Shown piece after piece: positions 49,588 through 52,863 of a stretch of DNA of 64,000 nucleotides. Source of the stretch: Naumovozyma dairenensis CBS 421. Taxonomy: Eukaryota; Ascomycota; Saccharomycetes; Saccharomycetales; Saccharomycetaceae. The stretch is from assembly GCF_000227115.2 (NCBI RefSeq), contig NC_016481.1:699259-763258 (forward strand). The letters run 5' to 3'. The notes below the pieces were generated by a model. The model made no database searches and was not told the origin of the DNA. It saw nothing but the letters and a program-made list of their open reading frames with translations. Every line of letters starts with the position of its first letter. Position 1 is the stretch's first letter. A program made the position numbers and the translations under genes.

Positions 49588-52500
49588 TTAATCCATTCCA
49601 TGCGAATTATTAGTATTATTATTATTACTATTATTATTAGTGTCATTATTATTGGCATTGTCACTGTTAGTAAAGTCATGATGAGATTGATTCCCTTCTA
49701 AATCTGGAACAGGTAATAATGGCTCAAAAAATACTGATGTCATGGTAGCATCAGAGATATTCTCTCTAACAATATTGGCTAATCGTAAATCATCCTCTGT
49801 ATTAGCAGAATTAGTTAACATTGCCTCATGTTCATTCCCATTCTCATTATGATTCGTATTAGTAGTGGTATGGTGATTATTAGGATGATTGGACATAGGA
49901 ACCGTGAAATGGTTATTAGTATGATTATGCTCATGATCATCATCAATCTTATGACTATACCTTTGCGATTCCTTGTGATACAAAGTTTCTTCTTCTTGTT
50001 CCTCCTCTTCTTCCTCATCATCATCATCATTATTATCATCATTAAATTTTATATGGTGGTGCTCATCTTGCCTTCTCTCCTCTGCCGTATGTGGTGGAGT
50101 AATGTCTATATTACTTCTTCTTATTCTCCCAGACATTTCATTCCCTGGCAAGGCCGTAGCACCGTTGTCTAGCTCTTTCAATCTAATATTTTCTTCACAG
50201 TTATATATAAACTGCATTAATTTGCCATGATTCAATCCGACATTGATCATTACACGTCCAAACCCATTTCTAACAATATCATGAATATTTTTGATTCTCT
50301 TGGATAATGAATTCTGAAGGTAATAAATAATTTCAATTTGATCAGTCAGCGTCATATCGTCTGTATTGCTATCTTTAGCTTTCTTTCTCTGATGATCATC
50401 GGATATTGAGTTATTAAGATTTTGATGTATCGTATAACCATGATTATTATTATGCTCATAGTCATGATTTAGAAAGTAATTATTTTGTGCCTCATTATTA
50501 TTAGTCGTATGGTCATCAACATGTTCATCTTTGTACATTTTTGGTATGACCAAAGAACCTGAATACCACTGTCTATTCAATTTTCTCAATTCAGATTTGA
50601 AGAAATTTAGAATCCCGAAATCTAATGGTTGTAACATAGTGGAAGAATATGAAGGAATAATTAAAAGATCAATATTTAATTCATTTAAAACTCGTAGAAA
50701 ATCCATTTGGAAGGGTATAATTTCAGAATTAATAATTAATAATCGTCTTGTACTATGATAATCTAAACCTTTCGATTGTAAGAATTTTGCAGTTTGTTTA
50801 TGGAAACATTCTATGATATACTTGGAAAATATTTCGATTTTGTTCCTTTCTTCTTCATCTTCTTTTGAAGGGATTGTGATGATCCAATCATCCTTCATCC
50901 GATTATATTTTATTTGTGAAATGATGGAATCTCTGCCATTAGTGCGGTTATCATACTCCGAATTCAAGATGATATTTGGCTTCAAAATAGATCCATCAAT
51001 GCCTACAGTGTATAGTAAAGAAAACTCATCATCAGCTATTGAAATCATAACAGTATTATTATTATTATTAGTAGTAGTAGTAGTAGTAGTAGTGTCTTGC
51101 AAGTTACTGTCCTCCCTCATTCCTCCTGTTGATTGCTCCTCATCCTCTTCTTCTCCGTCATTACCATCTTTAGCTGATGGTTGATTTTTTTCCGTATCAT
51201 CAAAGTTATAATGGATTTGATGTGCAAACTTAGAATGATCCCCTAGATCCACAGGATTAACAGTTTGATGGCCTATATGGTCTAAATCATGCGGTATTCT
51301 TGAAGAACTCACAGTATCGATTCCATCCAATGAATAGCTGCCATTGTCATTGTTACCCCTATTGTCTTCTGTTCTTAATAATGTATCTATGACACTTTCA
51401 CTGATATTATCTGTGTTATTATTAGATTGAAATGACTTATGGAAATAATTTTCGTTCTCGTTTCTATTTCTCTTTTCATCGTTGTTTTGTCGTGATTCTT
51501 TTGTTTCGATTTTACTTCCATTTGATCTACGGTCATCCTCAGGATTTTGAATTTGAGTTCCATGCCCACCAGGTATATTAAAGGGTTGTTTTCGTCTCTC
51601 TTGTTCTTCGATATGTAAAAGTGATGCGTTCTTAGTATTATTATTATCATTATTATTATTATTATTTGTTGATATTTTGCTTTTCAATTTTTTAGGAGAA
51701 CGATATCTATCACCAATTTCCCCTACTTTAATTAATATTTCGTCACAATTCCAAATACGATCATCATATTCAGTTAAAGATTGGTTGAATAAAATGTTGG
51801 ACCTCAGCCATTCCTTATTTTTAACCTGATCATCTTCATCATTACAATTTCTGTTTTCACGATTGTTATTGTCATTATTATTGTTGTTAATGGTTGGATG
51901 TAGTTTCTCGTTGATCAATAATTTCCTTTTCTTTTGTGAAATGCCCAATTTTTGTCTAATTCTCGTAATAGTACGTTTACTAACCACTTTATTATTTGAG
52001 GAAGAACCGCTGTTAACATTACTATTATTCCTATTTTTCATGACATTATTATTTTTAGCGAGTCTCTTGATATAATTTAATGCATTGAATGTATTCCTCA
52101 GTTTACTATTGAACGTATGATCATTCAAATCGGACGTTTTAATTAATATCCCGTCGTGGATGATAGAATATGCAGAAAGTAACGTGAAAGGATCATTATG
52201 CGGATCACTCGGACTGATAGTGGTAGCATTATTTAGTTTGTCTAATAATTCGTCAACAGTTTCAGTTTCATTCAAAGCCAATTTTTTCCTATTTAAGAAC
52301 CTTTCAATATAATATTTTAAATCATCGTCCATGTTAGGTAATGGGAACTCATTATTATGAGCAATACTTAACATTGCCTTGAATAACAATATTTCATTTG
52401 ATTCCAATAAAGGTTTTGATGCAGCTCCGAATATGACACTATTTTTATGGAAACCTTTTAAATGATCATCAAAGGTTTGCCTTGCTATACCGAAATACTT

Positions 52501-52863
52501 GCTCACTGTAGTGACTGATGGTTTCCTTACGTTATCTCGTAAATGTTTATTATTGTATCTGTAAAAAGTGGTAGCCATTTCAATGATGTGACGTTTTAAA
52601 TCTTGTTGTTCTATTTTATCCATGGATTTATCTCTACTTATTCGACCATAATTTAGTTTTGAAATGTCATGAATCATAGCAGGGTCCGTTATATAGACTT
52701 GCTGTTCGTGGAATTCTCCAGGAATCACCTCCAAAGGGTATTCATCTGTCGATTTGATCAGATCTGGTTCCACATTCGATAAATTGATTGACATGGAGAG
52801 GTCAATTATTTTCTGCAGACCTAGCATATGAATATATCTTGTTGTTGCCACCCTTCTTTGCAA
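49588..52863 (-). CDS. Domesticated pogo/CENP-B-type transposase-derived protein
   Basis: 1091 residues. The psq-type helix-turn-helix RKPSVTTVSKYFGIARQTFDDHLKG lies at 113-138. A CENP-B-type second helix-turn-helix region (ESNEILLFKAMLSIAHNNEF) follows at 154-200, then VSKRTITRIRQKLGISQ (295-310). The DDE core has WNCDE (Asp374) and MLQPLDFGILNFFKSELRK (Asp748), the pogo third-acid motif. Where the second aspartate is expected (lDgH in active elements), the sequence reads RLLIINSEIIPF with Asn712, so catalysis is probably lost. Large Asn, His and Asp/Glu-rich tracts interrupt and follow the domain. The frame is intact over 3.3 kb without stops. S. cerevisiae has nothing between MPC2 and SOL3. 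Its only relative I recall is Pdc2, which has a different layout. Function is unknown, perhaps a DNA-binding regulator. Confidence 0.82.
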   Translation of the reverse strand: MQRRVATTRYIHMLGLQKIIDLSMSINLSNVEPDLIKSTDEYPLEVIPGEFHEQQVYITDPAMIHDISKLNYGRISRDKSMDKIEQQDLKRHIIEMATTFYRYNNKHLRDNVRKPSVTTVSKYFGIARQTFDDHLKGFHKNSVIFGAASKPLLESNEILLFKAMLSIAHNNEFPLPNMDDDLKYYIERFLNRKKLALNETETVDELLDKLNNATTISPSDPHNDPFTLLSAYSIIHDGILIKTSDLNDHTFNSKLRNTFNALNYIKRLAKNNNVMKNRNNSNVNSGSSSNNKVVSKRTITRIRQKLGISQKKRKLLINEKLHPTINNNNNDNNNRENRNCNDEDDQVKNKEWLRSNILFNQSLTEYDDRIWNCDEILIKVGEIGDRYRSPKKLKSKISTNNNNNNDNNNTKNASLLHIEEQERRKQPFNIPGGHGTQIQNPEDDRRSNGSKIETKESRQNNDEKRNRNENENYFHKSFQSNNNTDNISESVIDTLLRTEDNRGNNDNGSYSLDGIDTVSSSRIPHDLDHIGHQTVNPVDLGDHSKFAHQIHYNFDDTEKNQPSAKDGNDGEEEDEEQSTGGMREDSNLQDTTTTTTTTNNNNNTVMISIADDEFSLLYTVGIDGSILKPNIILNSEYDNRTNGRDSIISQIKYNRMKDDWIITIPSKEDEEERNKIEIFSKYIIECFHKQTAKFLQSKGLDYHSTRRLLIINSEIIPFQMDFLRVLNELNIDLLIIPSYSSTMLQPLDFGILNFFKSELRKLNRQWYSGSLVIPKMYKDEHVDDHTTNNNEAQNNYFLNHDYEHNNNHGYTIHQNLNNSISDDHQRKKAKDSNTDDMTLTDQIEIIYYLQNSLSKRIKNIHDIVRNGFGRVMINVGLNHGKLMQFIYNCEENIRLKELDNGATALPGNEMSGRIRRSNIDITPPHTAEERRQDEHHHIKFNDDNNDDDDEEEEEEQEEETLYHKESQRYSHKIDDDHEHNHTNNHFTVPMSNHPNNHHTTTNTNHNENGNEHEAMLTNSANTEDDLRLANIVRENISDATMTSVFFEPLLPVPDLEGNQSHHDFTNSDNANNNDTNNNSNNNNTNNSHGMD

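What the first reader, a model, noticed from the sequence alone, without database searches (positions are those of the whole stretch)
49588..52863. Intact, probably catalytically dead pogo/CENP-B transposase gene between MPC2 and SOL3
Seen: psq-type helix-turn-helix, CENP-B-like second DNA-binding region and DDE core with Asp374 and Asp748, but Asn712 where the second acid is expected, in a 1091-codon frame without stops, and no obvious terminal repeats. Known: pogo transposases were repeatedly domesticated (CENP-B, fission-yeast Abp1, budding-yeast Pdc2). Inference: a separate, possibly undescribed domestication with a DNA-binding function in this lineage.
Basis: partly seen in the sequence, partly recalled or inferred. 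Interest (0 to 1): 0.82.

Follow-up and report, generated by a model that had tools for sequence, protein, structure and literature searches.

The report
Domesticated dead pogo transposase in Naumovozyma
A former jumping-gene enzyme that has lost one of its cutting residues has been kept as an ordinary gene beside SOL3 in two yeast species, probably as a DNA-binding protein of unknown target.

Summary
It is a real gene: 1068 codons from the ATG at 52794, with a DDE_1 domain above Pfam's cut-off and Asp374/Asn712/Asp748. The genome is probably Naumovozyma dairenensis (inferred). The N. castellii relative NCAS_0D01440 has the same D-N-(35)-D set, and its locus tag directly follows that of N. castellii SOL3. 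So the gene most likely sat there, already lacking this acid, before the species split. N-terminal and DDE regions are equally conserved (47% each); the linker is not (20%). No terminal repeats and no second full-length copy were found. A decayed relative on contig 7 keeps D-D-(35)-D and has terminal repeats; shortened copies and miniature elements of that family are scattered in the genome. A 412-codon gene on contig 10 resembles only the N-terminal part. A Pdc2-like gene (name recalled) is separate. Most likely this is a separate domestication acting as a sequence-specific DNA binder; binding is inferred and the target unknown. A link to this genus's unusual centromeres is untested speculation.

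The parts
49588..52794 (-). Coding sequence, 1068 aa, ATG start supported by the N. castellii relative
52450..52737 (-). N-terminal unit (ORF aa 43-138) with predicted hairpin and helix-turn-helix; present twice in tandem in N. castellii and once in the contig-10 gene
52282..52431 (-). Putative second DNA-binding region (ORF aa 145-194), by resemblance only
   Evidence: no Pfam match
51943..51981 (-). Conserved SKRTITRIRQKLG segment
51742..51744 (-). Codon of Asp374, first catalytic acid (WNCDE)
51037..51675 (-). Asn-rich, poorly conserved linker inside the DDE region (28 of 137 identical)
50551..51036 (-). DDE core, 71 of 151 identical to N. castellii; Pfam DDE_1
50728..50730 (-). Codon of Asn712, in place of the second catalytic Asp; Asn in N. 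castellii too
50620..50622 (-). Codon of Asp748, third acid (LQPLD), 35 residues lying between it and Asn712
49591..50157 (-). Acidic, Asn-rich C-terminal tail (29 of 89 identical)
48876..49280 (+). MPC2 (neighbour, convergent; gene name recalled, family by Pfam)
54108..54866 (+). SOL3 (neighbour, divergent); its closest relative outside this genome, NCAS_0D01430, has the tag directly before NCAS_0D01440

Best explanation
A pogo-superfamily transposase with Fot-like spacing (35 residues between second and third acid) was captured as a host gene beside SOL3 in the ancestor of N. castellii and N. dairenensis. It lost the second catalytic Asp (now Asn) before the two species split. Shown: adjacent locus tags, same lost acid, intact frames, equal conservation of the N-terminal and DDE parts, no TIRs above chance. 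Inferred: the protein binds DNA through its N-terminal helix-turn-helix unit(s), the inert DDE fold now serves dimerisation or protein contacts, and the acidic or Asn-rich segments recruit partners, so that it works as a sequence-specific transcription or chromatin factor, as Pdc2, CENP-B and Abp1 do (their roles partly recalled).
For: Relative NCAS_0D01440, E 1.2e-125; NCAS SOL3 = NCAS_0D01430. D-N-35-D in both, D-D-35-D in the contig-7 relic. Identity to N. castellii: N-terminal part 108/231, DDE 71/151, linker 28/137, SOL3 172/249. Profile-profile match over the DDE core to two DDE_1/HTH_psq transposase-like proteins, prob 95.6, E 1.3e-8. No TIRs above chance. HTH in the model of the N-terminal unit. 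A related 412-aa gene resembles the N-terminal part only.
Against: No Pfam helix-turn-helix family matches the protein, and DDE_1 in the N. castellii relative is just under the cut-off (21 against 22 bits). The stretch after the DDE core is poorly conserved (17 of 64). The whole-protein model is of too low confidence to use (pLDDT 32), and fold searches with the N-terminal model gave nothing. dN/dS could not be computed because no N. castellii DNA is held. DNA binding, expression and phenotype are untested. Orthology rests on two species; adjacency in N. castellii rests on consecutive locus tags, and the MPC2 side was not checked there.
Confidence: 0.72

Rival explanations
1. It is a transposon repressor: a dead transposase that still binds the TIRs of the related pogo/MITE family and blocks or silences them, with host regulation absent or secondary.
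For: A related element family was mobile in this genome: a 3.25-kb decayed element with TIRs on C7, internally deleted copies on C1 and C2 at 79-87% DNA identity, three miniature inverted pairs of 91-126 bp, and 57 TIR-core sites against 5 for the reversed control.
Against: The relic transposase is far from the window protein (35% over 66 aa), so shared TIR recognition is not shown; no TIR-like site above chance lies in the window; the gene persists in N. castellii, where the element family was not examined.
Confidence: 0.2
2. It is a centromere-associated protein of the unconventional Naumovozyma point centromeres, analogous to CENP-B or Abp1.
For: In the searches made, the full-length family turns up only in the genus whose point centromeres were replaced before the same split (PMC4533239). 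Pogo transposases have become centromere proteins in mammals and fission yeast (passages of PMC10085805 and PMC10799480).
Against: Ndc10 and Cep3 (CBF3) already bind these centromeres and are essential in N. castellii (PMC4533239). The only likeness I saw between the TIR end and NaCDEI is CGGGTA, six bases, and the flanks of the two clearest centromere matches do not resemble the TIR by eye. The published centromere pattern itself gave 4 matches here against 5 for its reversed control. The family's distribution rests on a word-based, capped search.
Confidence: 0.06
3. An old transposase gene that is decaying and has no function.
For: One catalytic residue lost; long low-complexity insertions.
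Against: Open frame and domain conservation in two species at what looks like one locus; the relic copies of the related family are broken by stops and deletions.
Confidence: 0.03

Closest known systems
Pdc2 / Rag3 (budding-yeast pogo-derived transcription factor; recalled)
   Same: DDE_1 protein kept as a host gene; presumed DNA-binding regulator
   Different: The Pdc2-like gene (named by recall of the Pdc2 sequence, no call names it) is separate, on contig 1, with strong DDE_1 and Tc5 HTH matches and a PDB match to Abp1; profile comparison with the window family finds no relation (prob 0.5)
CENP-B and fission-yeast Abp1/Cbh1/Cbh2 (Cbp1 family)
   Same: Domesticated pogo-superfamily transposases
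   Different: No CENP-B_N, HTH_ABP1_N or Tc5 match here; those derive from pogoR and Lemi families (PMC7386202 and PMC10085805, passages); centromere role untested
POGK (vertebrates)
   Same: Catalytic signature DN35D, the same substitution and spacing (PMC7386202 Table 1, passage)
   Different: Passer-derived, with BrkDBD and KRAB domains; independent event
Fot/Fot-like pogo transposons
   Same: 35 residues between second and third acid; the related relic has TIR matches of 39-47 bp (the paper gives 40-60 bp and DD35D for most Fot and Fot-like)
   Different: Window gene has Asn for the second Asp and no TIR; the relic seems to end at TA, while most Fot elements use TAA (some Fot and many Fot-like use TA)

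Membership tests
pogo-superfamily transposase | DDE_1 catalytic domain | tested here: met
   26.6 bits, cut-off 22; profile-profile E 1.3e-8; N. castellii relative 21 bits, just under
pogo-superfamily transposase | complete D-D-D triad | tested here: not met
   D374-N712-D748; N. castellii D446-N700-D736
pogo-superfamily transposase | N-terminal HTH of psq, Tc5, CENP-B_N, ABP1_N or Brk type | tested here: inconclusive
   No Pfam match; helix-turn-helix in the model at pLDDT 71-88; no fold match
active pogo transposon | terminal inverted repeats with TA duplication and several copies | tested here: not met
domesticated pogo gene | no TIR, single full-length copy, same locus in related species | tested here: met
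   two species only, by consecutive locus tags
domesticated pogo gene | Ka/Ks below 1 | not testable with these tools
   no N. castellii DNA held; protein conservation only
Fot/Fot-like family | 35 residues between second and third acid | tested here: met
   criterion from PMC7386202 passages; no tree was built
Pdc2 orthologue | closest gene of the genome to Pdc2 | tested here: not met
   Another gene, G000:C1:814124, fits Pdc2 (name recalled); no profile relation to the window family
CENP-B / Cbp1-type centromere protein | binding to centromeric DNA | not testable with these tools
   no binding data

The most novel reading that the evidence does not exclude
The protein belongs to the newly evolved Naumovozyma centromere: a captured pogo DNA-binder arose on the same branch as the replacement of the classical point centromere and took part in recognising or spreading the new centromere DNA, a further independent CENP-B-like recruitment.
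Probability: 0.05. Interest if true: 0.93.

Novelty: new member of a known kind. Interest (0 to 1): 0.5.

Why it matters
It adds a domesticated pogo transposase that is separate from Pdc2 and that I did not find described. A related element family survives in the same genome: a relic that keeps the D-D-D set, deletion derivatives and miniature elements. That gives a concrete candidate binding site (the TIR) and a clean test of what a dead transposase binds. It also sits in the genus whose point centromeres were replaced.

Tried and rejected
Active element: rejected (no TIR above chance, one full-length copy). Pdc2 orthologue: rejected (name recalled). The PDB sequence searches gave only weak matches (best E 0.06) and, with the profile, none up to E 10. 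The full-length structure model was unusable (pLDDT 32). Foldseek gave no match with E <= 0.001, and the 50 rows shown by the second look hold no CENP-B or transposase DNA-binding domain; neither shows that the fold is new. Centromere link by shared sequence: NaCDEI and the TIR end share only CGGGTA; the published pattern gave 4 matches against 5 for its reversed control, and a stricter form with up to 2 mismatches 159 against 200, so the motif is not evidence by count; two zero-mismatch sites (C5:1025545, C7:989881) look like centromeres to me and share flanking sequence, perhaps a tRNA gene (not checked). Papers: none holds NCAS_0D01440, none holds Naumovozyma with pogo, none holds pogo, Pdc2, transposase and yeast together; Pdc2 with CENP-B gave 2 papers, seen as a listing, unrelated by title; Pdc2 with transposase gave 12, seen as a listing, one opened for passages, only reference-list hits. 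Whether the solo TIR-core sites are regulatory was not resolved.

Full report
Identity of the genome. The window is G000:C3:699259-763258 of a 13,527,580-base genome in 11 contigs. A review table gives N. dairenensis CBS 421 as 13.5 Mb and 11 (PMC5499181, passage). The closest SOL3 outside this genome is that of N. castellii (70%, next 63%). I therefore take it to be N. dairenensis; this is an inference. The N. castellii centromere elements of PMC4533239 (abstract, Results and legends read), used as one pattern, gave 4 matches against 5 for the reversed control, so they do not add to this by count.

The gene. The frame 49588-52863 on the minus strand is open for 1091 codons. The N. castellii protein NCAS_0D01440 (931 aa) starts opposite the ATG at 52794, so the protein is most likely 1068 aa. 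Besides the protein itself it was the only one found with E <= 0.001 among 7993 scored candidates, a capped list. With a two-sequence profile it was found again, with two distant DDE_1/HTH_psq proteins of unnamed source at E 5.3e-4 and 0.032, among 6989 candidates. The search needs shared 5-residue words, so the limit to Naumovozyma is provisional.

Locus. The SOL3 relative of N. castellii is NCAS_0D01430, the tag directly before NCAS_0D01440; both clusters have a longest contig of 958,728 bases. The gene therefore most likely sits beside SOL3 in both species. The MPC2 side was not checked in N. castellii. PMC4533239 (legend of its Figure 1) puts the species split at about half the age of the genome duplication, itself about 100 million years.

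Domains. Pfam recognises DDE_1 only (26.6 bits, cut-off 22); the N. castellii relative scores 21. Profile-profile comparison with the two distant proteins runs through the DDE core over 183 columns, prob 95.6, E 1.3e-8, and places WNCDE, LLIIN and LQPLD opposite WNCDE, LLILD and LQPLD. The triad is D-N-D with 35 residues between the last two positions, in both species. Gao et al. [quoted passage not shown] The N-terminal unit occurs twice in N. castellii; its copies are 42% and 54% identical to the single copy here and 47% to each other. The AlphaFold model of residues 1-305, from three sequences, has a hairpin (residues 24-35, block means 66-71) and a helix-turn-helix (helices 60-84, 94-101, 105-112; block means 79-88 up to residue 110) and is poor beyond about residue 120. 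Identity to N. castellii is 46.8% in the N-terminal part, 47.4% in the next segment with the first acid, 47.0% in the DDE core, 26.6% after it, 20.4% in the linker and 32.6% in the tail, against 69.1% for SOL3. The DDE core is thus kept as strictly as the N-terminal part although one catalytic residue is gone.

Terminal repeats. The region from MPC2 to SOL3 holds 25 short inverted pairs, two of which bracket the coding sequence; four control stretches of the window hold 34, 19, 25 and 18. No match of the related family's TIR stands above a shuffled window; the 15-base core with 3 mismatches matches once in the window, far away, with 0.6 expected.

Relatives in the genome. DDE_1 is found at four places: a Pdc2-like gene on C1 (840 aa, name recalled), a 705-codon gene on C2 with D-D-35-E (its likeness to the window family is weak, E 0.008 and prob 22.7), the window gene, and a decayed copy on C7. 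The C7 copy has relic frames matching the window family's profile (E 6.8e-14 and 5.6e-8; best shuffled protein 0.36), keeps D-D-35-D, and is framed by inverted repeats of 47 bases (with an overlapping match of 39) about 3.1 kb apart and 81-82% complementary, with TA adjoining both ends (the exact boundaries are my inference). DNA copies of it that lack about 1.4 kb of the interior lie on C1 and C2 (79-87% identity over their pieces). A 15-base TIR core with up to 2 mismatches has 33 matches against 6 for the reversed pattern; an 18-base core with up to 3 has 57 against 5. Ten of the 57 form five inverted pairs, of 91, 126, 126, 1735 and 3231 bases. A 412-codon gene on C10 matches profile columns 19-172, prob 96.6, E 5.2e-10, and shows no DDE_1 match.

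Reading. This is a domesticated, catalytically disabled pogo transposase, separate from the Pdc2-like gene, in a lineage where a related element family also existed as mobile DNA. That it binds DNA and regulates something is inference from its anatomy and from the fate of similar genes. The related TIR is the first candidate site to test. A centromere role is attractive because the classical point centromere was replaced in the same genus, but CBF3 binds the new centromeres (PMC4533239) and no sequence evidence ties this gene to them.

Limits. No N. castellii DNA was available, so no dN/dS. Two species only; no tree was built. The literature search covers open-licence PubMed Central papers only. 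PMC12925627, PMC12711049, PMC10799480, PMC10085805, PMC7386202, PMC5499181 and PMC2675101 were seen as passages only.

Noticed in passing
L018:3479-6727 (G000:C7 about 1446478-1449726): Decayed 3.25-kb pogo-type element with long TIRs and a relic transposase keeping D-D-35-D; related internally deleted copies on C1 and C2
   Followed up: yes
G000:C3:445060-445150, C4:302946-303071, C5:672747-672872: Miniature inverted-repeat elements of 91, 126 and 126 bp sharing the TIR core of the C7 element
   Followed up: partly
L033, L036, L041, L044, near position 1490-1518: Solo TIR-core sites that keep the outer ~23-28 bases without a partner repeat found in the fetched 3 kb, outside ORFs of 120 aa or more; may be decayed ends or reused binding sites
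   Followed up: partly
L019:4599-5837 (G000:C10 about 513098-514336): Intact 412-codon gene next to an FBP1-like gene (neighbour named by recall) that resembles only the N-terminal part of the window protein
   Followed up: partly
L020:4718-6835 (G000:C2 about 161717-163834): Intact 705-codon gene with DDE_1 (34 bits) and D-D-35-E, another possible pogo-derived host gene
   Followed up: partly
P0002 residues 4-117 and 139-255: Tandem duplication of the N-terminal unit in the N. castellii relative
   Followed up: yes
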